Origin: a virus
Strand: one strand, 5' to 3'
IMG/VR virus record: IMGVR_UViG_3300036985_001339
Location: 1-64,000 of that record
DNA: 64,000 nucleotides
Below the pieces are notes generated by a model, which saw only the letters and a program-made list of their open reading frames with translations, searched no databases and was not told where the DNA came from. The position numbers and the translations under genes are program-made. The stretch's first letter is position 1, and each line of letters starts with the position of its first letter. Below are positions 14,373 to 26,368 of the stretch, in pieces.

Positions 14373-14437
14373 TAGTGTATAATATATTGTACGTTAGATG
14401 TCATTTATATGCTTAATGTATCATATATTGTACATTA
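14373..14437. repeat. Two dyad operator-like repeats, 41 bases apart
   Basis: TAGTGTATAATATATTGTAC followed by GTTA (14373-14396) and TAATGTATCATATATTGTAC followed by ATTA (14414-14437) differ at three of 24 positions. The second is a perfect dyad (TAATGTA, ten bases, TACATTA). The 41-base spacing is close to four helical turns, so a dimeric protein could bind both on one face. Confidence 0.55.
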
Positions 14438-14696
14438 TCAGTTCTTTTGTGTATTATATAACACGTTGTTGTAAAAAAAAATACTATAAAAAATTTTTTT
14501 GAGGTTGGGTGTTTATGTGAGATGTAGGGAGATTTTGTGTTACTACGCTATTTCTAACTTGAAATTTGAATTCGGAAACGCTTTTTAGTTTGGCGGGTTC
14601 CCCAACTTCTGAGGTTCCTAGGTTCTGCGATGAGTCGTATCGTGTCGATCGTATAAAGGGATTGAGCTTTTACCTTTCAGTATGTATAGCATCCAC

Positions 14697-14736
14697 CACG
14701 GAGTTACTCTATTGCTTATCAGATAATATATATGAA
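14697..14736 (+). promoter_or_regulatory. Early promoter copy A
   Basis: CACGGAGTTA at 14697 and GATAATAT at 14722, 25 bases apart start to start, followed by ATATGAA. A TGTATAGCA word lies 5 bases upstream. It drives the first copy of the triplicated protein. Confidence 0.7.
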
Positions 14737-14772
14737 AGCAATTAAGCTATCAATCTAATAAATAAATAAACT

Positions 14773-15039
14773 ATGCCAAACACAGCAGCAGTTGCAGCAG
14801 CAACACCAACAGTAGCATTGACTACAAAAAGATTCGTTATCAGAAAGAGTTTGATCGGCACTAACACAGTGATCTCATTCACCAACAACAAGCAAGTAGT
14901 GTGTACCTACAATCATGACAAGGTATACAATCAGTTGAAGACTAAGTTTGATCTTATGCCTTGCTTCGCTAAGTATGGGTCTTACACTAACACTAACAAC
15001 CTACCTGCATTCGTAAGAGCGTTAACAGAGTTAGTATAG
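14773..15039 (+). CDS. Early protein, triplicated family copy 1, 88 aa
   Basis: A variable Ala/Thr-rich start (MPNTAAVAAATPTVA) is followed by a 72-residue conserved core beginning TTKRFVIRKSLIGTNTVISF and ending NNLPAFVRAL. The core is nearly identical in the copies at 15344 and 16299. No known domain was recognised; the core is basic and could bind RNA or DNA. Of the three, copies 1 and 3 use more C- and G-ending codons than the AT-rich copy 2. It is the first rightward gene and therefore probably one of the first made in infection. Confidence 0.85.
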   Translation: MPNTAAVAAATPTVALTTKRFVIRKSLIGTNTVISFTNNKQVVCTYNHDKVYNQLKTKFDLMPCFAKYGSYTNTNNLPAFVRALTELV

Positions 15040-15098
15040 TCAATCGATCTAAGCATATCGTTAAACTGCTTACTTTATCTAATCTAATCTTATCTATC

Positions 15099-15203
15099 AT
15101 GAAATACGTATCATCATTCTTTAGTCAAGCGAAGCCACAGATATTGCTAGCTTTATACATCGGTCTTTACTTCGTAATACGATCTGTTGTATCTTACATC
15201 TAA
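15099..15203 (+). CDS. Small membrane peptide, 34 aa
   Basis: The frame encodes MKYVSSFFSQAKPQ followed by a hydrophobic helix (ILLALYIGLYFVIRSVVSYI). It lies between copy 1 and a strong terminator, in the same transcript. Its short length lowers confidence, but the ATG, spacing and complete membrane segment fit a real early peptide, possibly acting on the host membrane. Confidence 0.5.
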   Translation: MKYVSSFFSQAKPQILLALYIGLYFVIRSVVSYI

Positions 15204-15221
15204 TCTATCTATTGTTTAATC

Positions 15222-15245
15222 AAGGACCTTCGGGTCCTTTTTTTT
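15222..15245 (+). terminator. Rho-independent terminator
   Basis: AAGGACC, a TTCG tetraloop, GGTCCTT and then a run of eight T residues: a textbook intrinsic terminator closing the first early transcript. Confidence 0.9.
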
Positions 15246-15266
15246 AGCTTAAACATGTATAGCACA

Positions 15267-15306
15267 CACGGACTTACAAGTTTTTATAAAAGATAATATA
15301 TTTGAA
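15267..15306 (+). promoter_or_regulatory. Early promoter copy B
   Basis: CACGGACTTA at 15267 and GATAATATATTTGAA at 15292, again 25 bases apart. TATATTTG matches the Bacteroidota TAnnTTTG box exactly. A TGTATAGCA word is 2 bases upstream. Confidence 0.75.
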
Positions 15307-15343
15307 GATTAATAATAATCTTTATAATTTAATATTTAATACT

Positions 15344-15577
15344 ATGCAAAATTCAATCACCACAAAAAGGTTTGTTATCAGAAAAAGTCTAATTGGTACA
15401 AACACAGTAATTAGTTTTACTAACAACAAAAATGAGTTGATGACTTATGACCATGACAAAGTCTATAACCAACTAAAAACAAAGTTTGACTTAATGCCTT
15501 GTTTTGCTAAATATGGTAGTTATACTAATACTAATAATCTACCAGTATTTGTTAGAACATTGAAAGAGTTAGTTTAA
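15344..15577 (+). CDS. Early protein, triplicated family copy 2, 77 aa
   Basis: The start is the ATG at 15344 (MQNSITTKRF); an in-frame TTG at 15302 falls inside the promoter and is rejected. The conserved core differs from copy 1 at a handful of positions (NKNELMTYDHDK for NKQVVCTYNHDK, VFVRTLKELV at the end). The DNA differs at many synonymous sites: 13 of the first 21 codons of the core differ with no amino-acid change. It has the shortest N-terminus of the three. Function is unknown. Confidence 0.85.
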   Translation: MQNSITTKRFVIRKSLIGTNTVISFTNNKNELMTYDHDKVYNQLKTKFDLMPCFAKYGSYTNTNNLPVFVRTLKELV

Positions 15578-15635
15578 TCAAATGACCTAAGCAAGTCTTA
15601 AAACTGCTTATTATATTAATCTTAAATCAAATCAC

Positions 15636-15809
15636 ATGAAGTTAGTTAAAACAGTAAGTAAAGAGTCAGGGACAGTGTACACAGAATACACAGATGGTAG
15701 TAATACATTTATCTATGAAGATGATGTGTTGGTAGGAGTTGAAACACTAAGTTTCACTGCAACAATAAGTAATTCAGACAACAGTTTAGTTGAGTTTGTA
15801 GAATTATAA
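15636..15809 (+). CDS. Small acidic early protein, 57 aa
   Basis: The frame begins MKLVKTVSKESGTVYTEYTD and ends SDNSLVEFVEL, with alternating strand-like residues and a net negative charge. It follows copy 2 in the same transcription unit and is closed by a hairpin at 15827. No family was recognised; small acidic early phage proteins often inhibit host proteins, but nothing specific supports that here. Confidence 0.6.
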   Translation: MKLVKTVSKESGTVYTEYTDGSNTFIYEDDVLVGVETLSFTATISNSDNSLVEFVEL

Positions 15810-15826
15810 TAACATAGTAACTAAAT

Positions 15827-15848
15827 AACCCTCAGAAATGGGGGTTTT
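15827..15848 (+). terminator. Weak intrinsic terminator
   Basis: AACCC and GGGTT form a short stem around a loop and are followed by TTTT, between the 57-aa gene and the next promoter copy. Confidence 0.55.
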
Positions 15849-15852
15849 ACTA

Positions 15853-15892
15853 CACAGACTTATAAAGACACAAGTCAGATAATATCTTTGAA
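15853..15892 (+). promoter_or_regulatory. Early promoter copy C
   Basis: CACAGACTTA at 15853 (one mismatch to the common form) and GATAATATCTTTGAA at 15878, 25 bases apart, with an exact TAnnTTTG box (TATCTTTG). Confidence 0.7.
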
Positions 15893-15918
15893 ATTAATAA
15901 TAACTTAAATCAATCATT

Positions 15919-16095
15919 ATGAGTATTTACACAGAAGAGAACATTGTAACATTAGACAACAAACAGTATGAAAAACTATTTAATCATCCCTATGATGAGA
16001 AGTATAGAATTATCTTTAGTGATGAAGATTATGATTACATCGAAGATGAGCGTATGATCGCTATATTAGATGAAGAATATTATAAGTTAGTGTAA
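15919..16095 (+). CDS. Small acidic early protein, 58 aa
   Basis: The product begins MSIYTEENIVTLDNKQYEKL and has a strongly acidic, Asp/Glu/Tyr-rich C-terminal half (FSDEDYDYIEDERMIAILDE). Such charge patterns can mimic DNA, as in some anti-restriction proteins, but that is speculation. It is a single-gene unit with its own promoter (copy C) and its own terminator at 16111. Confidence 0.65.
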   Translation: MSIYTEENIVTLDNKQYEKLFNHPYDEKYRIIFSDEDYDYIEDERMIAILDEEYYKLV

Positions 16096-16110
16096 CATAT
16101 CTAATCTAAG

Positions 16111-16130
16111 ACCCTCGAAAGAGGGTTTTT
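16111..16130 (+). terminator. Rho-independent terminator
   Basis: ACCCTC, a GAAA tetraloop, GAGGGT and a T run: a compact intrinsic terminator after the 58-aa gene. Confidence 0.85.
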
Positions 16131-16209
16131 ACTCTACTTAATTGTGGAATTGGCAGGCAGAGGTGTGCGTAGTCGCTAATGAAGGAATATAACTGGTAAT
16201 ACCATAGTA
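16131..16209 (+). other. Gene-free segment with tRNA D-arm-like stretch
   Basis: The segment includes GTGGAATTGGCAGGCAGAGG, which resembles the 5' half of tRNA-Leu-type genes, but no T-arm or anticodon arm follows. It contains no plausible gene. It may be a degraded or untranslated structured element. Confidence 0.3.
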
Positions 16210-16221
16210 TGTATAGCACTT

Positions 16222-16261
16222 CACGGACTTACGACGTTTAATATTTGATAATATATTCGAA
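16222..16261 (+). promoter_or_regulatory. Early promoter copy D
   Basis: CACGGACTTA at 16222 and GATAATATATTCGAA at 16247, 25 bases apart. A TGTATAGCA word lies 3 bases upstream. The leader just downstream is nearly identical to that after copy B (AGATTAATAATAATCT), so promoter, leader and gene appear duplicated together. Confidence 0.75.
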
Positions 16262-16298
16262 GATTAATAATAATCTTTATAATTTTAATTAATAAACT

Positions 16299-16595
16299 AT
16301 GCCAGTAAAAACTTCAAAAGCGGTTGTAGCAGCGATAGCAGCTCCCGCAGTAGTAACAACTACAAAAAATGCTTTAACGACTAAACGCTTCGTTATTCGC
16401 AAGTCATTAATAGGCACTAACACAGTAATTAGTTTTACTAATGTTAAGCAAATACTATGTACTTACGACCACGACTTAGTTTATAACGCTTTAAAAGCTA
16501 AATTTGACCTTATGCCTTGCTTTGAAAAGTATGGTAGTTATACTAATACTAATAATTTACCCGCTTTCGTTAGAGCGTTACCAACTTTAGTATAA
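16299..16595 (+). CDS. Early protein, triplicated family copy 3, 98 aa
   Basis: The longest copy: an Ala/Thr-rich N-terminus of about 25 residues (MPVKTSKAVVAAIAAPAVV) precedes the conserved core with TTKRFVIRKSLIGTNTVISF. Changes relative to copy 1 include NVKQILCTYDHDLVYNALKA and FEKYGSY. Both long copies share the Ala-rich start, so copy 2 has probably lost it. The codon choices again differ from the other two copies. Strong terminator immediately downstream. Confidence 0.85.
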   Translation: MPVKTSKAVVAAIAAPAVVTTTKNALTTKRFVIRKSLIGTNTVISFTNVKQILCTYDHDLVYNALKAKFDLMPCFEKYGSYTNTNNLPAFVRALPTLV

Positions 16596-16605
16596 TTAAT
16601 TAAAT

Positions 16606-16632
16606 AAGTCGCCTTCGGGCGGCTTTTTTTTT
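16606..16632 (+). terminator. Rho-independent terminator
   Basis: GTCGCC, a TTCG tetraloop, GGCGGC and nine T residues after copy 3. The A-rich side also lets it partly stop the facing HTH gene at 16635. Confidence 0.9.
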
Positions 16633-16634
16633 AT

Positions 16635-16817
16635 TTATAATGAGTGCCTGTGCACTGTTCTTCTGTGTACATTTAGCAATAAAGCTATTGAAGTAACAGA
16701 ATTAAATGGAAATAACGCTCTTAATTTAGTGACTTTCTCTTTAGTAGTGATTGACTTGTCTTTACTTATTTCAGTAGCAATAATCCAATCTTCAATTGAC
16801 CATTTAGATGTTCTCAT
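16635..16817 (-). CDS. Reverse-strand HTH protein, 60 aa
   Basis: A lone minus-strand gene inside the rightward arm. The C-terminal half, VTSIALLLNVHRRTVHRHSL, looks like a helix-turn-helix with a basic recognition helix; the first half has EDWIIATEISKDKSI and a Lys-rich helix. It faces the terminator at 16606 and is preceded by a second-class promoter motif on its own strand. A small regulator of the neighbouring early promoters is a fair guess. Its short length keeps confidence moderate. Confidence 0.55.
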   Translation of the reverse strand: MRTSKWSIEDWIIATEISKDKSITTKEKVTKLRALFPFNSVTSIALLLNVHRRTVHRHSL

Positions 16818-16833
16818 TTTATAATTATTTATA

Positions 16834-16856
16834 GTTATATCTATATAATCACAGGT
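16834..16856 (-). promoter_or_regulatory. Second-class promoter motif before the HTH gene
   Basis: On the minus strand ACCTGTGATTATATAGATAT begins 39 bases before the ATG at 16817; 12 consecutive bases (ATTATATAGATA) also occur in the copy before the ERF gene. Confidence 0.5.
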
Positions 16857-16972
16857 TGTCTCACTTATTTACAAGTTAAACAGTATGACAATAGCCCCTT
16901 ACTCTTCTTACTTAATACCCTAATGTCATAGTTTACATTTTAGTTTCTTTTTAGTGTTTTTGCTATACACTT

Positions 16973-17012
16973 CACGGACTTTTTTAAATTTACTACAGAT
17001 AATATGTTTGAA
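16973..17012 (+). promoter_or_regulatory. Early promoter copy E
   Basis: CACGGACTTT at 16973 and GATAATATGTTTGAA at 16998, 25 bases apart, with an exact TAnnTTTG box (TATGTTTG). TGCTATACA lies 3 bases upstream. The long leader contains a hairpin AACAGT/ACTGTT at 17023-17040. Confidence 0.75.
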
Positions 17013-17113
17013 ATTAATAATTAACAGTGTAAAAACTGTTATAAAGAGCAGAGAGAGTCTGTAATACACCTCTCGTAGTATTTTAACTAATAAACATTTT
17101 AACACCTTAAACT

Positions 17114-17359
17114 ATGCAAGAATTAATCGAGAACATCCAATCTATTGAAGGTTTACTAGAGTTTAATATCGAGCCAGGTTACTGGCAAGATGAAGACGGT
17201 AACGAAGTTCAAGTAAACTTGATAATACTCCATCATTTATTTAGTTCCTTTGAAGATGAAACTTACTTAGAACTAATGAGTCTATTTCCTGAGAATACTG
17301 ATGAGTATGAAGATGAGGAAGGATACTATGTTTCAACCTTCATAGATTATAAGGTTTAA
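17114..17359 (+). CDS. Acidic early protein, 81 aa
   Basis: A very acidic protein (MQELIENIQSIEGLLEFNIE and later ENTDEYEDEEGYYVS) with alternating hydrophobic residues. No family was recognised. It is the only gene between promoter copies E and F and has an unusually long leader of about 100 bases, which might control translation. Charge and size are compatible with a DNA mimic or host-enzyme inhibitor, with no direct support. Confidence 0.7.
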   Translation: MQELIENIQSIEGLLEFNIEPGYWQDEDGNEVQVNLIILHHLFSSFEDETYLELMSLFPENTDEYEDEEGYYVSTFIDYKV

Positions 17360-17364
17360 AACCC

Positions 17365-17404
17365 TCCGGACTTACAAATATAATAGTCAGATAATATACG
17401 TGAA
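17365..17404 (+). promoter_or_regulatory. Early promoter copy F
   Basis: TCCGGACTTA at 17365 and GATAATATACGTGAA at 17390, 25 bases apart; the -7 box is degenerate. Confidence 0.65.
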
Positions 17405-17440
17405 ATAAATAATTAATTTAACCTTTAACACCTAATTCCT

Positions 17441-17647
17441 ATGTCAAACAAAGTATCAAGTTACAAGCGCAGAGAGTCTACAATCTGGTTAAACAAAGTA
17501 GAATACACTGGTTTTTTAATTGGTTCATTACCGTCAAGGTTTGCCTACATCTACGATGAAGACGAAGAACGAGATGGAATATCAAGTTGGTTTAACTTCA
17601 GAGGTTTAACCTACATAGCCAAAAGAGACTTACAAACTGGTTGGTAA
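17441..17647 (+). CDS. Hypothetical early protein, 68 aa
   Basis: MSNKVSSYKRRESTIWLNKV is followed by a strand-rich segment (YTGFLIGSLPSRFAYIYDED) and RGLTYIAKRDLQTGW. It is the first of five closely packed genes (17441-18686) read from promoter copy F. No family was recognised and no catalytic motif is visible. Confidence 0.65.
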   Translation: MSNKVSSYKRRESTIWLNKVEYTGFLIGSLPSRFAYIYDEDEERDGISSWFNFRGLTYIAKRDLQTGW

Positions 17648-17648
17648 T

Positions 17649-17840
17649 ATGAGTTGTGGTTTTAATAGTGATGCTATCGATGGTTTCAAAGCTTTCATCC
17701 TCTGTGGTGGAAGCAGAGACCAGGTAGTTCGCGAGATGTCTGAGTATATTTATACACAGTGTACTTGGGATTCCAATTGGGAAAGACACGAGTTATTAGA
17801 AAAATTAATCAAAATAGTATATAATGAAGAAATACAGTAA
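17649..17840 (+). CDS. Hypothetical early protein, 63 aa
   Basis: A helical, mildly acidic protein (MSCGFNSDAIDGFKAFILCG, then REMSEYIYTQCTWDSNWERH) with four cysteines not arranged as a clear metal site. It starts one base after the previous stop and overlaps the next tiny gene. Unknown function. Confidence 0.6.
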   Translation: MSCGFNSDAIDGFKAFILCGGSRDQVVREMSEYIYTQCTWDSNWERHELLEKLIKIVYNEEIQ

Positions 17841-17922
17841 GATTGCTAGTATAATATTATTAAAGTTCAAAGTTGGATTTATTAACCTTGCTATTGGCGC
17901 AGGTCAGGCATTAAGAAGCTAA
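17824..17922 (+). CDS. Very small hydrophobic peptide, 32 aa
   Basis: The frame reads MKKYSKIASIILLKFKVGF and continues INLAIGAGQALRS, an amphipathic or membrane-active peptide. It overlaps the previous gene by 17 bases and ends 3 bases before the next start, a typical coupled arrangement. Its shortness makes it tentative. Confidence 0.45.
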   Translation: MKKYSKIASIILLKFKVGFINLAIGAGQALRS

Positions 17923-17925
17923 AAT

Positions 17926-18174
17926 ATGGAAGCAGCAGCACAATTAGCTCATGACTACATGAAGCAAGTTAAACAAAATAGAGTGGATGAGCATAGGCAT
18001 CTGCACTCACACGAGAGACGCTGTGGCGGACTTACGTACTCTGAATGGAAGTTGCCCGTTAGGCAGAAGACAACGTTTAGTAAGGGTAAGAAGTTCGCTA
18101 GCACTCGACTGTGGAGTTACAAGTCTGTGCCAACAGAAGACGGGTTTAAATCATTAACTATTAAAACTATATAA
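17926..18174 (+). CDS. Basic His-rich early protein, 82 aa
   Basis: Residues 5-40 form a basic, His-rich helix (DEHRHLHSHERRCGG) and the second half is Lys/Ser/Trp-rich (RQKTTFSKGKKFASTRLWSY). It could bind nucleic acid or metal. It starts 3 bases after the preceding peptide and stops just before the 169-aa gene. G+C content is higher here than in neighbours. No family was recognised. Confidence 0.6.
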   Translation: MEAAAQLAHDYMKQVKQNRVDEHRHLHSHERRCGGLTYSEWKLPVRQKTTFSKGKKFASTRLWSYKSVPTEDGFKSLTIKTI

Positions 18175-18176
18175 TC

Positions 18177-18686
18177 ATGAGTAAATTAAGAGTGGCACAA
18201 GTGCCTAAAGAATTCAGAAATCAGATGTTCTCTAATATGGTTACCATAAGAGGTAGAGAGGGAACACTAGAAGCATGCGAGAATAACATTACATTATCTG
18301 AAGCTTTTCCGTGGCTATTAACGCCTGAAGGTCATAAATTCTGGGAAGATATAAGTAATGGTAAAACTCCTAAACCAGTTGGCGTTAGTGCGGTTGGTGA
18401 AACATTAGAACAAGTGGTACAAGAAGCAGAACGAAGAGGATTCGCTAACGGTGTACATACTAAATGGGGTCAAATCAAAGAACGATTCAATGGTAATTCT
18501 GCAATTCAAGAACATGAGTTACAAGATGATGGTACGTTCTATTACAGAAACATTAAGGTTCGTAAAGCAAATGGTAAATGGATTAAACCTTTATCCGCTG
18601 CTGAGTCTGATGGTGGGACTGAGGTCGATGTAGATGCTATACACGCTTTTCTTAAGAAATTAGTTGAGAAAATTCATTTGAATTAA
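18177..18686 (+). CDS. Hypothetical protein, 169 aa
   Basis: The sequence has an N-terminal segment with VPKEFRNQMFSNMVTIRG, a central GETLEQVVQEAERRGFANG helix and a C-terminal ADG-type region rich in Lys and Asp. There is no recognisable domain. The last gene of the promoter F unit. A TGCTATACA word lies at 18635-18643 inside its coding sequence. A structured untranslated segment follows. Confidence 0.65.
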   Translation: MSKLRVAQVPKEFRNQMFSNMVTIRGREGTLEACENNITLSEAFPWLLTPEGHKFWEDISNGKTPKPVGVSAVGETLEQVVQEAERRGFANGVHTKWGQIKERFNGNSAIQEHELQDDGTFYYRNIKVRKANGKWIKPLSAAESDGGTEVDVDAIHAFLKKLVEKIHLN

Positions 18687-18689
18687 AGA

Positions 18690-18882
18690 TAGCGGTCGCT
18701 TGACTCAGATAGTACAGCGACAATCATTGGAACCGCTGAAGTTCTCGAATGGTGGCGTAAGCTAAAGGGTAATCTTACAACGGCGGAGTGCCTATTCCTT
18801 AATCTCCGCTAAATGACCAAGTACTGGGTTTCAATGGCATGTTGCGACCGACGGGTTAAGAGGTTCGATTCCTCTTTTGGTT
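18690..18882 (+). ncRNA. Structured untranslated segment ending in a tRNA-like arm
   Basis: No gene fits between 18687 and 18903. The segment holds several stems: AGCGGT/ACCGCT near 18693-18736, GTAAG/CTTAC near 18755-18779, and GCGGAG/CTCCGC near 18783-18810. It ends with a tRNA-style T-arm (GAGGTTCGATTCCTC at about 18861) enclosed by TGACCAA and TTGGTTA, which pair like an acceptor stem. There is no anticodon arm, so it is not a functional tRNA in the usual sense. It may be an RNA processing signal or degenerate tRNA cluster. Confidence 0.4.
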
Positions 18883-18903
18883 ACTAATATTAAATATATT
18901 ACT

Positions 18904-19077
18904 ATGAAAACATTTGATGTAGAAATAAAAGAAATACTTGCTAGAACTATAACAGTTAAAGCAGAAGACGAAATAGACGCTCGATCATTAGTTGAAGAGA
19001 TGTATCGTGGCGAAGAAATAATATTAGATTACAGTGATTTTGTATTAGTAGAATTTAACTCAACAGATTATGATTGA
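18904..19077 (+). CDS. DpnD/PcfM-like small protein, 57 aa
   Basis: The start is the ATG at 18904 (MKTFDVEIKEILARTITVKA); an upstream TTG lies in the tRNA-like segment. The pattern VEIKEILARTITVKAEDE followed by VEEMYRGEEIILDYSDF closely resembles the DpnD/PcfM family of short phage and plasmid proteins (recalled), whose function is not established. It overlaps the following Cys-rich gene by 8 bases. Confidence 0.7.
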   Translation: MKTFDVEIKEILARTITVKAEDEIDARSLVEEMYRGEEIILDYSDFVLVEFNSTDYD

Positions 19078-19192
19078 TACTTGGAATAATCCTCCTGAAG
19101 AAATGGAAGACGAATGCGACTTCTGTGGTGAACCATGTGATGGTCACTTTTGTTCAACTGAATGTAGAAAAGCCCATGAGCAAGATAATTAA
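19070..19192 (+). CDS. Small zinc-ribbon-like protein, 40 aa
   Basis: The frame contains CDFCGEPCDGHFCSTECRKAH: cysteine pairs with spacing like a treble-clef or zinc-ribbon knuckle. The rest is acidic. It overlaps the DpnD-like gene and ends just upstream of promoter copy G. It is probably a real metal-binding microprotein of unknown role. Confidence 0.6.
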   Translation: MIDTWNNPPEEMEDECDFCGEPCDGHFCSTECRKAHEQDN

Positions 19193-19198
19193 TATCTA

Positions 19199-19238
19199 CA
19201 CGGACTTTATAATAATTTAGTCAGATAATATATGTGAA
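19199..19238 (+). promoter_or_regulatory. Early promoter copy G
   Basis: CACGGACTTT at 19199 and GATAATATATGTGAA at 19224, 25 bases apart. Confidence 0.7.
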
Positions 19239-19255
19239 ACAAAAAATAAACGTGT

Positions 19256-19459
19256 ATGCAAGCTAAAATCAAAGTAAAAAACGGGTACTGGACTTACAAT
19301 GGTAAATCATTAGTCAACTGTACATTTCCAGAGAGACAAATAGTATCTCAGTTCATTAAAAACTCTATATTTAGTTTCGAAATAGATCCACAAATGGATG
19401 TTAGAGAGACTAACGATCTGTTAGAGCATAATTATAATTTCGAGTTTGTTAGACCTTAA
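19256..19459 (+). CDS. Hypothetical early protein, 67 aa
   Basis: MQAKIKVKNGYWTYNGKSLV is followed by an amphipathic segment (PERQIVSQFIKNSIFSFEID) and an acidic end. First gene after promoter copy G, 18 bases downstream of the motif. No family was recognised. Confidence 0.65.
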   Translation: MQAKIKVKNGYWTYNGKSLVNCTFPERQIVSQFIKNSIFSFEIDPQMDVRETNDLLEHNYNFEFVRP

Positions 19460-19471
19460 ATAATTTAATAT

Positions 19472-19579
19472 ATGGAAAGTAATTGCTGTGGTGCTTGGAC
19501 AAATATGGAAGAGTACGGAATTTGCCCAGAATGTTTAGAACATTGTGAATTTATTGATGAAGATGAAGATGAAGCGTAA
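19472..19579 (+). CDS. Cys-rich acidic microprotein, 35 aa
   Basis: The short frame (MESNCCGAWTNMEEYGICPE, then CLEHCEFIDEDEDEA) carries CC and CPECLEHC cysteines that could bind zinc, and an acidic tail. It follows the 67-aa gene closely. It resembles the 19070 microprotein in style. Confidence 0.5.
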   Translation: MESNCCGAWTNMEEYGICPECLEHCEFIDEDEDEA

Positions 19580-19595
19580 GACGCTTGCTATACAC

Positions 19596-19695
19596 GCTTT
19601 TTAGCGTGGTCGGTTAAATCTGGCGATGGTTCAATAGCATAGGTTGAACTGAGAGTTCGATTCTCTCTTATCCACAAAGTTATCATAGTGATAAC
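19596..19695 (+). ncRNA. Second tRNA-like untranslated element plus hairpin
   Basis: Between 19580 and 19724 there is no gene. GGTTCAATAGCATAGGTTGAAC (19628-19649, written here as GTTCAA/TTGAAC stem with a 9-base loop) resembles a D-arm and is followed directly by a T-arm, GAGAG TTCGATT CTCTC (about 19651-19667), with no anticodon arm. The ends only partly pair (GTGG with CCAC). A perfect palindrome GTTATCA-TAG-TGATAAC follows at 19679-19695, 30 bases before the ATPase gene. It shares its loop and T-arm pattern with the 18690 element. Confidence 0.4.
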
Positions 19696-19724
19696 CTTTA
19701 TTAATCTCTTTAATCCCTTTAAGA

Positions 19725-20762
19725 ATGGCGACAGCTAAAAAAACAAAAGCAGTAGTTCCAGAAACAGTAGGAGTAGGTTCCGACTTTGTATTTATGGACA
19801 AATCACTCAGTATATTAGATATTGGGTTGAAGACAGGTAAAAATATTGTATTGTATGGTCCAGGTGGTCACGGTAAGTCAGAACTTACTATGGCTTATCT
19901 TGCTGAAAAAGGCATCGACCCTTACGTAATTACAATGGGTACTGGTATGACTACAGATAGACTATTTGGTGGTCTTGACATACCTACATTTGAGAAAACA
20001 GGTAAAATTGAATACCTTGTTGAGAATTCGTTTATGAATAATGAGTATGTAGTATTCGAAGAATTATTCGATGCACCTGATTTTATTCTTGAACAATTAA
20101 AAGATATTTTATCTTCTAAAGTATTTAGAAATGGTACGCAGATCTTTCCTATTAAAACTAAATTTATAATCTGTTGTACTAATAGAACTCGTGAAGAATT
20201 CTCTAAGAATGCATCGTTAAAAGCATTAATGGAACGTTTTCCACTTGAGTTAAATGTAGTATGGGATAATTATACTGAAGCTAGTTATAACAAGTTGTTA
20301 GAAGTTAAGTTCGGTCAAGGTAATGTAGATCCTATTATTCCTTATTTACTTCAAGAGTATCACCGTGGTGGTGTCACTATTTCGCCAAGGGTGGCAGTGA
20401 CAGCTTATACAGTATATGAAGAATGTGGTCCTGACTCGTTAAACTTCATTGCAGAATTTGCTAAAAAACCTGCATTAATCGCTGAAACTCTTAAAAAATA
20501 CCAAAGTACTTTAAAATTCAGAAAATTATCTGACGATCTTGGTGAAGTTGTTAATAAATTACAAGCAAATAATTTAATAACTACAGCAGAACAAGCAGAG
20601 TATACTAATGATATTAACGTGTTAGCTAATACAATTAGAGATATTAAAAAGTTAACGGTATCAGATGACCTTGCAACCAATCACGCTTCGTTAATTAAAA
20701 GTGCGACTGAGTTATATACGACCTTATCTAAAAAGCAAACTGTATCATCTATAATGGAATAA
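19725..20762 (+). CDS. MoxR/CobS-type AAA+ ATPase
   Basis: A 345-residue AAA+ protein: Walker A GPGGHGKS at residues 45-52, Walker B YVVFEE at 108-113, sensor 1 IICCTN at 148-153, and a C-terminal helical lid with SPRVAVTAYTVYEECG. The compact N-terminus and the lack of other domains match the MoxR branch, which includes the cobaltochelatase subunit CobS. It is followed by a VWA protein with a 3-base gap, the standard partner of MoxR proteins. Together they probably remodel or load cofactors or complexes; the substrate is unknown. A phage origin of such pairs is less common than the bacterial one. Confidence 0.85.
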   Translation: MATAKKTKAVVPETVGVGSDFVFMDKSLSILDIGLKTGKNIVLYGPGGHGKSELTMAYLAEKGIDPYVITMGTGMTTDRLFGGLDIPTFEKTGKIEYLVENSFMNNEYVVFEELFDAPDFILEQLKDILSSKVFRNGTQIFPIKTKFIICCTNRTREEFSKNASLKALMERFPLELNVVWDNYTEASYNKLLEVKFGQGNVDPIIPYLLQEYHRGGVTISPRVAVTAYTVYEECGPDSLNFIAEFAKKPALIAETLKKYQSTLKFRKLSDDLGEVVNKLQANNLITTAEQAEYTNDINVLANTIRDIKKLTVSDDLATNHASLIKSATELYTTLSKKQTVSSIME

Positions 20763-20765
20763 ATT

Positions 20766-22193
20766 ATGAGTAAGTATTCTAGTTACTGGGGTTCTGATGA
20801 CGATTATACTTCAGAGTATGATACGTATGGAAATTATGGTTACGGTGGTAGAAATAGTAAAAAAGAAAGTAGATACAGTTCATACTCTTGGAAACCGAGT
20901 GTATGGACTAACTACTCTTGGGGTGGACTTGAAGAAGAAGATGATAATTCTAAATTATTCGTTAAAGATCCAGTTACTTATTTAACTCCTACTAAAGCAG
21001 ATATTAAAGCAAAGTCTAATGTATGGATTGATAAGTCAATAGATACTATTAAGGAATTAGCTCGTGTCTGTTATTTTAAAATGATAGACGAGCGTGAGTA
21101 TGTTAGTGAAATGTTTGCTGATTACGACTCTCTTTCTGAAGGTCAACAGTCAGACTACGAACAAAAGAAACAGTTGTATGATGGTATCTTTGAACAATTC
21201 ATTCCTGGTAATACTCCACTTGAACAAGCAATAGCTATTTATAGACAAATTGGCGGTAAAAGCGAATATAAAAGAAGAGATCCAAGCGAACAAGATGAAG
21301 ATGAAGATATGGACTATGATTCAACTCTTAGTTTTGATAGAGCAATTTATTCTGATCCTTCTATCAATGAACAACTTGAATTTAACGAGTTAAGTAAAGA
21401 TAGAAAAATGGATATTCTTGATAAAATATCTATTGTTAGTAGACTAGGTGATCAGTTCAAAGTTGAAAAAGAAGTTGATGAAAAACTTGTATCAAACTCT
21501 GATCAGTATGTTAAAAAGATCATGCGTGACTATGCTCAGTTTAGTCAAATAGAATTATATCAGAAAATGTTTCCAAACTTTCGAACTAAGTTCTTAACTA
21601 AAGATTTAACTGTTAACGTACCTGTCGACCGAAAGGAACATAAGCAAAAAATAATTATATTATTAGATTTTTCTGGTAGTATGGACGAAGTTGAAAAGCA
21701 GATATGGGTGAATGCTATACTCATTGACCGTTTACGTTATGTCATGAAAGAAGAAGCTGAGGTATTCTTTAGTTACTTCGTACATAATCCTAAAAATCTA
21801 CAATTCCATCATCTTAAAGATAGAAAAGATGTAATGGATTTCTGGACATGGTTTTCTAACGATCCTGACGGTGGAACAACTGACATTGGCGCAATGGTTA
21901 CATCTGTAGCTAATGATGTTGCTAATCATAAGTTAGGTAATCTAACTGTAGATTTATCAGTTGAAAAACCTGAAATACTCGTTATTAACGACGGTCAAGA
22001 TAGAGTTGGTTATGATACTTTACCTTATAAAGTTAACGCCATATCTTTATTAGACTTCAGTGATGAGTTAAAAAATCTATGTGTTAAAACAGGTGGTAAA
22101 CAAGTTAGAGTTGGTTATGACCATTCTGTTACAGCGTATGCTGAAGAAGGTACAACCGTTATAGACGACGGTAAAAAAACAAAGTCAGCTTAA
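20766..22193 (+). CDS. VWA-domain partner of the MoxR-type ATPase, 475 aa
   Basis: The first 50 residues are Tyr/Ser/Gly-rich and disordered (SKYSSYWGSDDDYTSEYDTY). An alpha-helical middle follows, then a von Willebrand factor A domain with the metal-site motif IIILLDFSGSMDE, DFSGS at residues 301-305, and GGTTD later as a second metal-site segment. The order, helical region then VWA, resembles CobT and other MoxR partners. It ends before a strong terminator at 22204. It likely forms a two-part machine with the upstream ATPase. Confidence 0.85.
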   Translation: MSKYSSYWGSDDDYTSEYDTYGNYGYGGRNSKKESRYSSYSWKPSVWTNYSWGGLEEEDDNSKLFVKDPVTYLTPTKADIKAKSNVWIDKSIDTIKELARVCYFKMIDEREYVSEMFADYDSLSEGQQSDYEQKKQLYDGIFEQFIPGNTPLEQAIAIYRQIGGKSEYKRRDPSEQDEDEDMDYDSTLSFDRAIYSDPSINEQLEFNELSKDRKMDILDKISIVSRLGDQFKVEKEVDEKLVSNSDQYVKKIMRDYAQFSQIELYQKMFPNFRTKFLTKDLTVNVPVDRKEHKQKIIILLDFSGSMDEVEKQIWVNAILIDRLRYVMKEEAEVFFSYFVHNPKNLQFHHLKDRKDVMDFWTWFSNDPDGGTTDIGAMVTSVANDVANHKLGNLTVDLSVEKPEILVINDGQDRVGYDTLPYKVNAISLLDFSDELKNLCVKTGGKQVRVGYDHSVTAYAEEGTTVIDDGKKTKSA

Positions 22194-22203
22194 CAGTTTT
22201 TAA

Positions 22204-22232
22204 AGGGCCCACTGTGAAAGGTGGGTCTTTTT
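22204..22232 (+). terminator. Rho-independent terminator
   Basis: GGGCCCAC pairs with GTGGGTCT (eight pairs with two G-T) across an 8-base loop and is followed by TTTTT, closing the ATPase-VWA unit. Confidence 0.85.
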
Positions 22233-22246
22233 AATATTATAACTAT

Positions 22247-22465
22247 ATGAAAGACAGATATATAACAATGAGGAATAGTAACACTTTAGACTTACAATTC
22301 CTATATGACTTCTTTTTATCTAAAGGTGGTAAGTTAAGTCCAAACGAATTTGGTGTTGGTTTGAATTACTTAAACGCTATAGACTTATTAGAGTTTTTAG
22401 ATAAAGAATTTGAACTAACAATTATAACAGACAAGCAAGGTAATTTTATAAAAGTTATATCATGA
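22247..22465 (+). CDS. Hypothetical protein, 72 aa
   Basis: The sequence contains LDLQFLYDFFLSKGGKLSPN and ELTIITDKQGNFIKV; helical then strand. The start at 22247 lies 15 bases after the terminator; an alternative ATG is seven codons downstream. Its stop overlaps the next start (ATGA). No family recognised. Confidence 0.6.
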   Translation: MKDRYITMRNSNTLDLQFLYDFFLSKGGKLSPNEFGVGLNYLNAIDLLEFLDKEFELTIITDKQGNFIKVIS

Positions 22466-22761
22466 AAGACGAAGATATTATTGGAAAAGAATTTATTGCT
22501 GTTGAATTTGGTAAAACTGGAGTATTAACTTGTAATGAGCAATATAAACCATTTCTTGGTAAAACAGGTACTGTAACTAATGTACATCCAGATTTTACAG
22601 AATATGCTCGCGTGGAATTTAATATTCCTGGTTATATACACGCTTTACATTGGCCTGTTAAAGTTGTTAAAGAACAATTACAGGAAAACTTATTTAAAGA
22701 AACTCCTGAATATACTGAATATTTATTTAAAGAAATACTTAATTTAACTAAAACAAAATAA
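22462..22761 (+). CDS. Hypothetical protein with SH3-like barrel, 99 aa
   Basis: The segment FLGKTGTVTNVHPDFTEYAR followed by VEFNIPGYIHALHWPVKVV reads like a small SH3-type or KOW-like barrel with short strands and Gly turns. This is a structural guess only. Coupled to the genes on both sides. Function unknown. Confidence 0.6.
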   Translation: MKDEDIIGKEFIAVEFGKTGVLTCNEQYKPFLGKTGTVTNVHPDFTEYARVEFNIPGYIHALHWPVKVVKEQLQENLFKETPEYTEYLFKEILNLTKTK

Positions 22762-22763
22762 TT

Positions 22764-23117
22764 ATGGGATTAGACATGTATCTTTATAGAAATAGAGATC
22801 AAAATGAAGAAGTTGGGTATTGGCGAAAAGCGAATGCTATACACGGGTGGATAGTCGAAAACGTACAAAACGGACAAGATGACTGCGAAATATACGAATT
22901 TCCATTAGAAAAAATGCTTGAATTATATTTTTTATGTAAAAAAGTAATTAAAAATCCATTAAAATACCAAGTTAATTTAAAACCAATGAGTGGTTGTTTC
23001 TTTGGTAGTTATGACTATGACGTATATTACATAGAATATCTTAAAAATACTGTAAAAATACTTGAAAAAGCATTAAAACAACCTCAAGACACTTATCAAT
23101 ATCAATCATCATGGTAG
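22764..23117 (+). CDS. Conserved phage protein of the MGLDMYL family, 117 aa
   Basis: It begins MGLDMYLYRNRDQNEEVGYW, then has RKANAIHGWIVENVQNGQDD and GCFFGSYDYDVYYIEYLKNT. These blocks define a family widespread in phages of many hosts (recalled), sometimes mis-annotated as a kinase and still without known function. At 117 residues it is shorter than usual because the linker after the MGLDMYL block is reduced. A TGCTATACA word lies at 22835-22843. Confidence 0.75.
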   Translation: MGLDMYLYRNRDQNEEVGYWRKANAIHGWIVENVQNGQDDCEIYEFPLEKMLELYFLCKKVIKNPLKYQVNLKPMSGCFFGSYDYDVYYIEYLKNTVKILEKALKQPQDTYQYQSSW

Positions 23118-23329
23118 ATAGTTTAATAAAAGAAAGAGCATCTGATAAAGCATTTGCAAGAATTAGTGTTTTAGAATCTGAAGTGTTTGCTCTTAATAGA
23201 GATGTTAATAATGGTGGTTCTGGTGGTATTACACTGGAACAGTTGTTAGGTGTAGTAGATCACACTGAAACAGAAAGACTTATCTGGATCTACATATCTA
23301 GTTTAATAGAAAAAGATAATAGATTATGA
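23111..23329 (+). CDS. Hypothetical protein, 72 aa
   Basis: An N-terminal helical segment (SLIKERASDKAFARISVLES) is joined by a Gly-rich linker (NNGGSGGI) to a second helix (LEQLLGVVDHTETERLIWIY). It overlaps the preceding gene by 7 bases and the next by 4. No family recognised. Confidence 0.6.
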   Translation: MVDSLIKERASDKAFARISVLESEVFALNRDVNNGGSGGITLEQLLGVVDHTETERLIWIYISSLIEKDNRL

Positions 23330-23799
23330 AAGAATACATTAATAGATATAAAGACAAATTTACTTTTACAGAAAACGACGACCATGACATACTATGGGAA
23401 GGTAACTTTGAGTGGTGTAGATTTGGTATGCCAAATGACTATACAGAAGCTTATAAAGTTTACTGTGAAGACATGGGTAACTTATTGACAATGGAAGAAT
23501 TTAAAACCGCTGTTCATAAGTATGACGATATTAAAGGTAAATATATTTTAAGTGATAAATATATACGTTTAGTTGGTTCTTTAAAAAACGAAATAGATAT
23601 GGTTGATCCTTCTGGTGGACCTTATATATCTAGAGGCATGTCTCTGAGTTCATTTGGATTCAAAGATTACATTGTAAAAGATTTTGAACGTATAGACACA
23701 GGTTATAAAATAATTACAGAGAAGTGTCCTATGTGCAATCAGGCGGGAGGAATACATAAAATGAGTTGTGAAACAAGAAAAATAACTATATTATTATGA
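23326..23799 (+). CDS. Hypothetical protein with C-terminal Cys cluster, 157 aa
   Basis: The middle contains a Trp/Asp-rich region (DHDILWEGNFEWCRFGMPND). The last 30 residues hold CPMCNQAGGIHKMSC, a Cys2-type knuckle that could bind zinc. No known domain was recognised. It is coupled by ATGA overlaps to both neighbours, in the promoter-less stretch after the 22204 terminator. Confidence 0.6.
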   Translation: MKEYINRYKDKFTFTENDDHDILWEGNFEWCRFGMPNDYTEAYKVYCEDMGNLLTMEEFKTAVHKYDDIKGKYILSDKYIRLVGSLKNEIDMVDPSGGPYISRGMSLSSFGFKDYIVKDFERIDTGYKIITEKCPMCNQAGGIHKMSCETRKITILL

Positions 23800-24059
23800 C
23801 AAAAGAAGGAACAAAACAGATTTTACCCGAATGGTTTGACGGTGAAGTCTACACGGAAGGAGCAGAAGTTACCAATCCATACAGTGGATGTGGTTGTTAT
23901 TTATCTCCAAAGGAGTTAAGTATGTATGACTTTATTAAAGGTTCAGAAATGTTACTTAATCAAGGTATACAGTCAGAAAGTTTGGTAAATGCCTTTTATG
24001 AAGGTTTATGGTGGTTTAAGGATAATAATATTGAAGCTTACATGATACTATTAGATTAA
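23796..24059 (+). CDS. Hypothetical protein, 87 aa
   Basis: The sequence includes ILPEWFDGEVYTEGAEVTNP, then YSGCGCYLSPKELSMYDFIK and helical regions. The EGAEVTNPYSG style motif is common among small phage proteins without known function (recalled). Overlaps the previous gene by 4 bases. Confidence 0.65.
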   Translation: MTKEGTKQILPEWFDGEVYTEGAEVTNPYSGCGCYLSPKELSMYDFIKGSEMLLNQGIQSESLVNAFYEGLWWFKDNNIEAYMILLD

Positions 24060-24062
24060 TAT

Positions 24063-24164
24063 ATGGTAAAAGACATTTTAAACAAGTTAAAGTATATTTT
24101 ATTCTGTGTTATAGTTATAGGTTTGAGTTTAATTTTAAAAATGTGTGAAATGAAAAGATTATAA
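24063..24164 (+). CDS. Single-span membrane peptide, 33 aa
   Basis: MVKDILNKLKYILFCVIVIG continues with LSLILKM and a charged end: one membrane helix. It sits 3 bases after the previous stop and one base before the next start. Too short to classify; real by spacing and topology. Confidence 0.5.
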   Translation: MVKDILNKLKYILFCVIVIGLSLILKMCEMKRL

Positions 24165-24165
24165 C

Positions 24166-24327
24166 ATGAGTAGAACAGTTAAACAAGCATATAGAAAATC
24201 TAAAAGATTTGATAAGTCATGCAGAAACCATGGTGGTTGTTCTTACTGTCAAAGTAACAGATACCATTCACATAATAAAAGAAACGAAGAATCGTTACAC
24301 GGACTTAAAATTCTAAATGATAGATAA
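24166..24327 (+). CDS. Basic Cys/His-containing protein, 53 aa
   Basis: The product has a Lys/Arg-rich start (MSRTVKQAYRKSKRFDKSCR) followed by NHGGCSYCQSNRYHSH, a possible zinc-binding core. Its last ten codons lie inside early promoter copy H, whose stop TAA forms part of the GATAATAT box. So the C-terminal residues are constrained by the promoter. Confidence 0.6.
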   Translation: MSRTVKQAYRKSKRFDKSCRNHGGCSYCQSNRYHSHNKRNEESLHGLKILNDR

Positions 24328-24337
24328 TATTTAAAAC
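24298..24337 (+). promoter_or_regulatory. Early promoter copy H, embedded in a gene end
   Basis: CACGGACTTA at 24298 and GATAATATTTAAAAC at 24323, 25 bases apart. The -7 box is weaker than in other copies. It drives the 24353 gene and possibly the sigma factor genes downstream. Confidence 0.65.
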
Positions 24338-24756: not shown

Positions 24757-25374
24757 ATGTCACACGATAGAAATATAAAGTATTTAACTGATAGACGTAT
24801 AATATATAGAAGGTTTCCATTAGAAGATACACCAACACAGAGATTTGAGTGGGGTGACTATTATGAAGATGGAACCTTCGAGTGTTATGAGTTGTTTAGA
24901 AGTAAGGCCAAAATTAATACTTATAGAAGTCTAAAATGGCATTTGTTAGTTATATGGTATCTTAATCCTAAACTAGGTCAAGATAAATTAGAAACTTTAT
25001 GTAAGTTTATTTGTGATAAGAAAAACAATTTTGTTACCTTTACCATATCAGATCAGTTAATGAAAACTATATTATATGAAGTAAGTATGAAAGATCTAGA
25101 ATCTCCTCCTAAGAATAAAGTTAGGAAGATAATATTTAAAGACCAATGCCAATTAACGGCTGAACAGAAACTACAAATTGTAGGTCAAATTATCGGTCGT
25201 AAGAAATTATCTGAGTCAGAGATTTACGATGCTATGCTATACACTCATGATGATGGTGAAAAAATTACTGTTGAAAAAATAGCAAGATATTTAGGTTGTT
25301 CTGCTAGAACTGTTTACAGAAATATGGGTGAAGAACTTAAAAGAGAAAAAGAATTATTAAACCAAGAATTATGA
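24757..25374 (+). CDS. HTH-containing protein, possible transcription or replication factor, 205 aa
   Basis: The C-terminal 40 residues (VEKIARYLGCSARTVYRNMG) form a clear helix-turn-helix of the resolvase/sigma-region-4 type. The N-terminal region is mixed and contains FEWGDYYEDGTFECYELFRS, without a recognised domain; residues 130-175 are helical. It lies three genes after promoter copy H and two genes before the sigma factor, in the same operon, so it may act in transcriptional control. Alternatives such as a replication initiator cannot be excluded. Confidence 0.65.
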   Translation: MSHDRNIKYLTDRRIIYRRFPLEDTPTQRFEWGDYYEDGTFECYELFRSKAKINTYRSLKWHLLVIWYLNPKLGQDKLETLCKFICDKKNNFVTFTISDQLMKTILYEVSMKDLESPPKNKVRKIIFKDQCQLTAEQKLQIVGQIIGRKKLSESEIYDAMLYTHDDGEKITVEKIARYLGCSARTVYRNMGEELKREKELLNQEL

Positions 25375-25580
25375 GTAGAAACAGAACTTTAAAAGAATCA
25401 TTCATTAGAGACGCGATTAAAGGCACTATTAGAAATGATGTTGAAATTGCTGAAAAATTTGCTATTGGATTTTTAGATTGGATATACTATGATAAAAACA
25501 ATTATGCAGAAGATTGGCATAATGGTTATTATTCAACTCCAAAACTATTAGAAATCTATAAAAAAGAAAAAGGATTATGA
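25371..25580 (+). CDS. Hypothetical protein, 69 aa
   Basis: A basic, helical protein (MSRNRTLKESFIRDAIKGTI, then FLDWIYYDKNNYAEDWHNGY). It overlaps both neighbours by 4 bases, placing it in one transcript with the HTH gene and the sigma factor. No family recognised. Confidence 0.65.
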   Translation: MSRNRTLKESFIRDAIKGTIRNDVEIAEKFAIGFLDWIYYDKNNYAEDWHNGYYSTPKLLEIYKKEKGL

Positions 25581-26368
25581 AAAAGTATAATTTACAAAAT
25601 TATTTAAGGTATAAAGACGATGTCAAAAAAACCCTTAAAAGAATAGACAAAAAGAACTATAGTGATTATACTAGAGACGAACTAATAGCCACATTTCTAC
25701 CTTTAGTAGAGAATATATCTAAAAAGTTTTCTACAGCAGATCAAGCATCAGGTATAATGGATATAACTGATATAATTCAAGAAGGTAGTATAGGTTTAAT
25801 ATTTGCTGTTGATAAAATAGAATGGGAAACTATAAACTCTTCTAACAATCAAGAACAAACTATTAAATCTTTTCTATCAAAAAGAATTAAAGGTTCTATT
25901 AGAAGAGCTATTGATATTAATAGAGGTTCTATACGTATACCAGAACATAAGTTAAATGAGATGCGTAGAAATCCAGAGGATAAACAAATGGTTGAAATGT
26001 TCTTTAATAGTATATTTCAAAGCATAGACAAAGACGATAGTTTATTTTACGAAGATAGTAACGGTGACGGCGGTGGTGGTGTAAGTTCTTATGCTGAACA
26101 GTATGAAGACAAGTCTAAAGAATATAATATAGATTTTCTTAATGCTTATCTGTTTGGTTTATTTAAAAAATATTTAACTCATAATGAGTCTGAAGTATTA
26201 AGATTAAGTTATGGTTTAGATTGTGATAAACATTCTGCCAATGCTATTGCTGATTTTTTAGGATTTAAAGGTCCTAGTGCTTACGTCAGAGTTTCTGAGT
26301 TAAAAAAACTAGCAGTAACCAAGTTAATAGATAATGTAGATTCATCGCAAGTAATTGACTATCTGTAG
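25577..26368 (+). CDS. Sigma-70 family RNA polymerase sigma factor
   Basis: A 263-residue protein with region 2-like motifs (DIIQEGSIGLIFAVDKIEWE, matching the DLIQEGNIGL core-binding and -10 recognition segment). A region 3-like piece follows (KGSIRRAIDINRGSIRIPEH), then a region 4 helix-turn-helix (NESEVLRLSYGLDCDKHSAN, then AIADFLGF). Long acidic linker between them. It should redirect host RNA polymerase to phage promoters; the second-class motif (ACATGTAAT...TATAGATATAA) is the best candidate. A copy of that motif lies 24 bases after its stop. Confidence 0.85.
   Translation: MKKYNLQNYLRYKDDVKKTLKRIDKKNYSDYTRDELIATFLPLVENISKKFSTADQASGIMDITDIIQEGSIGLIFAVDKIEWETINSSNNQEQTIKSFLSKRIKGSIRRAIDINRGSIRIPEHKLNEMRRNPEDKQMVEMFFNSIFQSIDKDDSLFYEDSNGDGGGGVSSYAEQYEDKSKEYNIDFLNAYLFGLFKKYLTHNESEVLRLSYGLDCDKHSANAIADFLGFKGPSAYVRVSELKKLAVTKLIDNVDSSQVIDYL

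What the first reader, a model, noticed from the sequence alone, without database searches (positions are those of the whole stretch)
14697..24337. Eight early promoters share a rigid bipartite motif with exact 25-base spacing
CACGGACTTA (or a close variant) precedes GATAATAT by exactly 25 bases (start to start) at 14697, 15267, 15853, 16222, 16973, 17365, 19199 and 24298. Three copies (15267, 15853, 16973) carry an exact TAnnTTTG -7 box of Bacteroidota, at the right distance from the upstream element to act as a -33 region. The upstream CACGGACTTA element is not part of the known host consensus and may recruit a phage protein or a specialised host sigma factor.
Basis: partly seen in the sequence, partly recalled or inferred. 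Interest (0 to 1): 0.72.

Follow-up and report, generated by a model that had tools for sequence, protein, structure and literature searches.

The report
Phage sigma-factor promoters, a large family
The eight repeated DNA signals are almost certainly start sites for transcription that an uncultured virus of Bacteroidota probably marks for its own sigma factor, and hundreds of related, uncultured viruses carry that sigma factor, with the same kind of signal found in most of the 80 examined.

Summary
In detail: eight + strand sites, spacing exactly 25, 0.08 expected by chance; a PWM finds no other site in the window. The sites are promoters (inferred from sequence), but not of the host type proposed. 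They have sigma70-type geometry: -35 box CGGACTT, 16-bp spacer, -10 box GATAAT, and purine start 37 bases after the motif start. Three independent features fix that start: a pyrimidine/purine initiator, leaderless genes whose ATG begins exactly there, and blunt 5' hairpins with compensatory changes. The host -7 box TAnnTTTG is fortuitous. The phage encodes its own sigma factor at 25577-26368. IMG/VR holds at least 382 relatives of it. In the 80 best loci GATAATATNNNNR occurs 401 times on the sigma's strand and 13 times on the other. All 11 motif-bearing contigs that reach the position have the sigma gene. Four sigma-less relatives lack the motif. Best reading: host core RNA polymerase directed by the phage sigma. 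Recognition and timing are untested. An HTH gene beside sigma may share in recognition.

The parts
14697..14734 (+). promoter 1: -35 box CACGGAGTTA 14697-14706, -10 box GATAATAT 14722-14729, predicted start G 14734; gene ATG 14773
   Evidence: the C-to-G change at position 7 recurs in the most upstream site of about ten related genomes
15267..15304 (+). promoter 2: -35 CACGGACTTA, -10 GATAATAT 15292-15299, predicted start G 15304; gene ATG 15344
15853..15890 (+). promoter 3: -35 CACAGACTTA, -10 15878-15885, predicted start G 15890; gene ATG 15919
16222..16259 (+). promoter 4: -35 CACGGACTTA, -10 16247-16254, predicted start G 16259; gene ATG 16299
16973..17010 (+). promoter 5: -35 CACGGACTTT, -10 16998-17005, predicted start G 17010; gene ATG 17114
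17365..17402 (+). promoter 6: -35 TCCGGACTTA, -10 17390-17397, predicted start G 17402; gene ATG 17441
19199..19236 (+). promoter 7: -35 CACGGACTTT, -10 19224-19231, predicted start G 19236; gene ATG 19256
24298..24335 (+). promoter 8: -35 CACGGACTTA, -10 24323-24330, predicted start A 24335; the nearest motif site upstream of the sigma gene (genes 24353, 24757, 25371, 25577)
   Evidence: site in the same position in relatives
14734..14751 (+). 5' hairpin GAAAGCAATTAAGCTATC of transcript 1
   Evidence: fold; sister leaders GTAAGC..GCTTAC
15304..15323 (+). blunt 5' hairpin GAAGATTA-ATAA-TAATCTTT beginning at the predicted start
   Evidence: fold; compensatory changes in relatives
16259..16278 (+). 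blunt 5' hairpin GAAGATTA-ATAA-TAATCTTT beginning at the predicted start
25577..26368 (+). phage sigma70-family factor, 263 aa, regions 2 and 4 (protein P0002)
   Evidence: PHROG 351 E=1.8e-14, TIGR02937 3.1e-9, PDB FliA 3.5e-6, Foldseek SigA/RpoD prob 1.00
24757..25374 (+). conserved 205-aa helix-turn-helix protein just upstream of sigma; possible co-factor
   Evidence: found in 78 of 80 sigma loci, usually starting 0.6-0.8 kb before sigma; HTH at 147-190; otherwise no known family
14773..15039 (+). small protein of unknown function, one of three paralogues (also 15344-15577, 16299-16595), each behind its own promoter
   Evidence: direct reading; homologues in 35 of 80 loci

Best explanation
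The eight sites are sigma70-type phage promoters: -35 element CGGACTT (within CACGGACTTA), 16-bp spacer, -10 element GATAAT (-12 to -7), start at the purine 37 bases after the motif start. The phage-encoded sigma factor at 25577-26368 most likely binds the host core RNA polymerase and reads both boxes, region 2 on GATAATAT and region 4 on the clade-specific -35 box. It thereby turns on the cluster of small (probably early) genes and, through promoter 8, probably its own operon (positive feedback). Several of the transcripts begin with a blunt hairpin at base +1 that probably protects the mRNA 5' end. Shown from sequence: motif, spacing, direction, position before genes, start-site signals, presence of sigma and its co-occurrence with the motif. 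Inferred: recognition by this sigma, early timing, feedback, hairpin function.
For: Eight sites against 0.08 expected. IMG/VR scan finds the same motif in clusters, one strand per genome, zero on the other strand and zero for the reversed control in 23 contigs. Site logo from 113 unique sites: pyrimidine at -1 (87%), purine at +1 (98%). ATG exactly at +1 in 5 sites and 16 sites of the wider family. 5' stems start at +1, 64% paired against 44-48% when slid, with compensatory changes. Sigma present in 11 of 11 contigs that extend far enough; the other 12 end before it. From the sigma side: GATAATATNNNNR 401 sense against 13 antisense in the 80 best loci; 19 of 20 sigma-bearing records carry 2-17 sites on one strand only; 266 of 292 sites outside long ORFs although 79% of the DNA is in such ORFs. 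Sigma-less isolates elemoA, phi18:3, phi38:1 and MW202828 have no motif. The -10 core is shared across clades while the -35 block and the base at -13 vary by genome, as expected for a co-evolving phage factor. In L129 and L141 the sigma gene itself follows a GATAATA(T/A) box by 12 bases, which puts its ATG at +1.
Against: No biochemical or transcript data. Sigma and motif are both traits of one virus group, so co-occurrence could be shared ancestry. The sigma gene lies downstream of the promoters, so some first transcript must come from host sigma-A, read-through or virion-delivered sigma, and no host-type promoter was seen in the early junction. The wider family has an extra conserved ACGA block at -25 to -22 that a sigma would not normally touch, and an HTH gene is nearly always next door. 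Differences in sigma region 4 did not map cleanly to differences in the -35 box. Some sigma loci with short flanks show few or no sites.
Confidence: 0.78

Rival explanations
1. Two-protein recognition, as in T4 middle transcription: the conserved HTH protein (24757-25374) binds the long -35/spacer block and recruits RNA polymerase carrying the phage sigma (or a modified host sigma), which reads only GATAATAT.
For: The HTH gene is in 78 of 80 sigma loci and usually adjacent. In the wider family the conserved block TACA(A/G)nnnnAA(T/C)ACGA spans 16 bases and reaches to -22, more than sigma region 4 normally reads.
Against: In the window's own clade the box is a compact CACGGACTTA at the standard -35 distance and the ACGA part is missing. 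The HTH protein has no assigned function and may serve replication; it also sits beside the recombination genes ERF and PDDEXK.
Confidence: 0.13
2. Host sigma-A promoters with a phage-specific -33 element.
For: Three sites have an exact TAnnTTTG at a plausible distance. Early phage genes often use the host holoenzyme (own knowledge).
Against: TAnnTTTG no more frequent than column frequencies predict, middle T unconserved. The wide family has TATAAATG there. With TAnnTTTG at -12 to -5 (F. psychrophilum, PMC9723704) the start would fall inside leaderless ATG-led genes and cut the 5' hairpins. No host-type promoters enriched in the window.
Confidence: 0.05
3. The phage sigma serves other (late) promoters, and the motif is read by something else: a host ECF-type sigma (the -35 GGACTT resembles ECF GGAACTT) or an undetected virion RNA polymerase.
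For: ECF -35 resemblance (own knowledge). Related Crassvirales carry virion RNA polymerases (PMC10136315), and the 2462-aa late protein has no assigned function.
Against: Promoter preferences differ between phage genomes. The F. psychrophilum ECF motif has a CGT box at -10. No polymerase similarity found in the 2462-aa protein. A shared -35/-10 pair at fixed spacing is the signature of a sigma70-family factor.
Confidence: 0.04

Closest known systems
phiEco32 and 7-11 phage-encoded sigma regulon (PMC4331800)
   Same: lytic phage encodes its own sigma70-family factor, and a motif repeated before phage genes is the predicted promoter
   Different: their motif is a 9-bp extended -10 box (tAATGTAtA) for middle and late genes with a separate anti-sigma; here a -35 plus -10 pair lies before the cluster of small early-looking genes and none was found in the late region of the window
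Bacillus phage SPO1 gp28 and gp33/34 cascade (own knowledge)
   Same: phage sigma factors that redirect host core polymerase to two-box promoters
   Different: different sequences and hosts; SPO1 uses them for middle and late genes after host-sigma early genes
Flavobacterium sigma-A promoters, TAnnTTTG (PMC9723704)
   Same: probably the same host group; AT-rich; similar short leaders
   Different: box sequence, position and start site all differ
Elemovirus, Baltivirus (Pachyviridae), Callevirus and MW202828
   Same: closest annotated relatives by terminase (36-64% identity) and portal
   Different: no sigma homologue and no motif
FliA/sigma28 family
   Same: best single PDB hit by sequence is FliA; its -10 GCCGATAA also has GATAA (own knowledge)
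   Different: family models score far below FliA cut-offs and RpoD models score better; spacing and -35 differ

Membership tests
phage-encoded sigma regulon | genome encodes a sigma70-family protein with regions 2 and 4 | tested here: met
phage-encoded sigma regulon | shared -35/-10 motif at fixed spacing before phage genes, co-directional | tested here: met
phage-encoded sigma regulon | motif present with the sigma and absent without it | tested here: met
   11 of 11 reaching contigs with sigma; four sigma-less relatives without motif; shared ancestry not separated
phage-encoded sigma regulon | sigma-dependent initiation at the motif | not testable with these tools
   needs a transcription assay
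Bacteroidota sigma-A promoter | conserved TAnnTTTG at -12 to -5 | tested here: not met
Bacteroidota sigma-A promoter | TTG-type -33 element | tested here: not met
   CACGGACTTA or TACAnnnnnAA instead
N4-type hairpin promoter of a virion RNA polymerase | hairpin upstream of the start; phage polymerase gene | tested here: not met
   hairpin begins at +1; no polymerase similarity in the 2462-aa protein, though divergence cannot be excluded
T4 MotA/AsiA middle promoter | activator box replacing -35 plus sigma appropriation | tested here: inconclusive
   an HTH partner is conserved; no binding data
sigma54 promoter | -24 GG / -12 GC | tested here: not met
   logo shows neither

The most novel reading that the evidence does not exclude
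A large uncultured lineage of Bacteroidota podoviruses runs its earliest genes with a self-contained two-gene initiation module (sigma plus HTH partner) that splits promoter recognition. The -10 core stays fixed while the upstream block and the -13 base diverge from virus to virus, making orthogonal promoters, and the module may be carried in the virion to start transcription without host sigma.
Probability: 0.15. Interest if true: 0.8.

Novelty: new variant of a known kind. Interest (0 to 1): 0.6.

Why it matters
It gives a sequence-defined sigma/promoter pair for a virus group with at least 382 sigma relatives in IMG/VR and no close sigma match among 50,697 deposited phage records. It predicts exact transcript starts, offers a ready test of how phages take over the unusual Bacteroidota polymerase, and supplies a natural series of diverging promoters against one conserved -10 box. 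Such pairs could also serve as orthogonal expression tools in Bacteroidota.

Tried and rejected
Host sigma-A reading. Motif in known relatives elemoA, phi18:3, phi38:1, MW202828: none; the GATAATAT copies in the elemoA late region lack any shared upstream box. Virion polymerase in the 2462-aa protein: no hit. Rfam: nothing in the window. Structured RNA in the divergent junction: folds no better than shuffles. Mapping sigma residues to the -35 type or -13 base: correlations seen but confounded by ancestry, not claimed. Terminase relatives as a wider co-occurrence test: nearly all are fragments, little gained. First AlphaFold job with 12 sequences had pLDDT 68.5; 59 sequences gave 77.8, domains only, full-length TM about 0.3 because the linker is loose. 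Papers on this sigma or motif: none found in the held library.
Full report
What was checked. Eight sites, all on +, exactly 25 bases start to start, against 0.08 expected in shuffles. A PWM from the eight finds nothing else in the window above 8 bits, while the eight score 38-48.

Where it lies. The window is 64 kb of a 65,180-base IMG/VR virus record. Terminase and portal place it near Elemovirus, Baltivirus (Pachyviridae) and related flavobacterial podoviruses, closest to MW202828 at 64% for terminase. Genes left of about 14.3 kb and right of 36.4 kb are mostly on the minus strand (GroEL, tail, terminase, portal, virion proteins). The rightward cluster begins at 14.7 kb with small unknown genes and goes on to recombination, primase, thymidylate synthase and ribonucleotide reductase genes. 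The eight sites head the small genes of this rightward cluster; that they are early is inferred from this layout.

Relatives. An exact scan of IMG/VR for ACGGACTT-N16-GATAATAT gave 44 stretches, many with several copies, printed and compared. In 23 contigs with up to 2 mismatches every copy lies on one strand, none on the other, none for the reversed pattern. From 113 distinct sites the consensus is C-(T/C)-N-CACGGACTTA-N14-A-GATAATAT-A-T-(T/A)-(T/C)-G-A-A.

Geometry and start site. GGACTT and GATAAT are separated by 16 bases, within the -35/-10 spacing range of sigma70-family factors. Three independent signals put +1 at the fifth base after GATAATAT. First, that base is a purine in 98% and is preceded by a pyrimidine in 87%. 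Second, several genes begin with ATG exactly there: five in the close family, sixteen in the wider one, with few at the neighbouring positions apart from position -2, where the consensus itself spells ATG. Third, many leaders fold into a blunt hairpin whose first base is that +1. Stems such as GAAGATTA/TAATCTTT, GAAGGTTA/TAACCTTT, GAAGTTTA/TAAACTTT, GGAATTTA/TGGATTCC and GTAAGC/GCTTAC keep pairing by changes on both sides. In 37 distinct leaders chosen by gene family, not by pairing, 64% of cells pair in register against 44-48% slid by 1-3.

Why the host -7 box is rejected. In Flavobacterium psychrophilum TAnnTTTG lies at -12 to -5 (PMC9723704). Applied here the start would fall 5 bases later, past the start codon of the leaderless genes and inside the hairpin arm. 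The exact box occurs in 15 of 113 sites, 15.1 expected from column frequencies. Its middle T has 0.06 bit. In the wider family the sequence there is TATAAATG. TAnnTTTG is not enriched in the window.

The phage sigma. ORF 25577-26368 matches PHROG 351 (sigma factor, 1.8e-14), Pfam Sigma70_r2 weakly, several sigma NCBIfam models and FliA/RpoD chains of the PDB. AlphaFold on 59 homologues (pLDDT 77.8) matches SigA/RpoD chains at probability 1.00 and phage sigma factors in BFVD. It has regions 2 and 4 joined by a variable linker.

Sigma and motif go together. All 11 motif-bearing contigs that extend to the position carry the sigma (58-78% identity); the 12 without a hit end before it. Starting from sigma, IMG/VR holds 382 relatives. 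In the 80 best loci GATAATATNNNNR is found 401 times sense, 13 antisense, 61 in shuffled DNA. Outside the window's clade the fixed-register upstream block is TACA(A/G)nnnnAA(T/C)ACGA. In 20 such genomes the pattern ACG-N10-GATAATAT-N4-R occurs 2-17 times in 19, always on one strand, never in the reversed control. The -10 boxes lie outside long ORFs in 266 of 292 cases although 79% of the DNA is in such ORFs. Known sigma-less relatives have no motif. GATAATAT was fixed by the search itself, but columns not selected for (upstream block, A-4, T-1, G+1) are strongly conserved.

Clade variation. The -35 block differs by clade and the base at -13 shows a clear preference in 30 of 38 genomes that differs between genomes (T, A, G or C). 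A factor that travels with the phage explains this better than a shared host factor. I do not claim residue-level matching; ancestry confounds it.

The partner gene. A 205-aa HTH protein is found in 78 of 80 sigma loci, usually just upstream of sigma. It has no recognised family beyond the HTH and no match in the phage collection. It may be an activator that reads part of the upstream block, or something unrelated.

How it most likely works. Host core polymerase plus phage sigma initiates at the eight sites. Promoter 8 is the nearest site upstream of the HTH and sigma genes, suggesting feedback; in L129 and L141 sigma itself is leaderless behind such a box. How the first sigma is made is open: a weak host promoter, read-through, or delivery with the virion. 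The 5' hairpins probably stabilise mRNA, by analogy with known 5' stem-loops (own knowledge).

Novelty. Phage sigma factors with their own promoters are known (SPO1, T4 gp55, from own knowledge; phiEco32 and 7-11, PMC4331800). I found no paper on this family or motif in the library available. It is a new variant of a known kind: a widespread family with a fixed -10 box and diverging upstream block, in presumed Bacteroidota phages without a sequenced isolate in the collection searched.

Noticed in passing
window 16961-16970, 18635-18644, 19586-19595, 22835-22844, 25235-25244, 26659-26668, 29256-29265 (+), 38259-38268 (-); L067-L146: An exact 10-mer TGCTATACAC is hugely over-represented: 253 sense and 45 antisense against 2 in one shuffled strand over 1.44 Mb. 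It has sharp edges, mostly sits in coding DNA co-directional with the gene (157 against 18) in more than one reading frame, so it is a DNA or RNA signal rather than a protein one. Function unknown; Chi-like, binding or RNA site are possibilities.
   Followed up: partly
window 14682-14691, 15255-15264, 16209-16218, 16961-16970: A copy of TGCTATACA, in either orientation, sits just upstream of four of the eight -35 boxes.
   Followed up: partly
window 14376-14393 and 14417-14434: Two tandem 18-bp near-palindromes TGTAtcATATATtgTACA in the divergent junction, upstream of the leftward operon; possible operator or late promoter.
   Followed up: no
window 14773-15039, 15344-15577, 16299-16595: Three tandem paralogues of a small protein of unknown function, each with its own promoter; homologues in 35 of 80 sigma loci.
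   Followed up: no
window 36368-43756: 2462-aa late protein with an HEFLHA metalloprotease-like motif and no family match; probable internal or ejected virion protein.
   Followed up: partly
window 46898-48592: C-terminal domain of the Crassvirus muzzle protein (PF25729, 7.7e-11) in this podovirus.
   Followed up: no
L147, L150, L151 (Aliivibrio MAG), L149 (Ilumatobacteraceae MAG), L148, L152, L153 (Bacteroidota MAGs): Sigma-family phage contigs binned into bacterial MAGs, some of unlikely taxa, probably binning errors.
   Followed up: no
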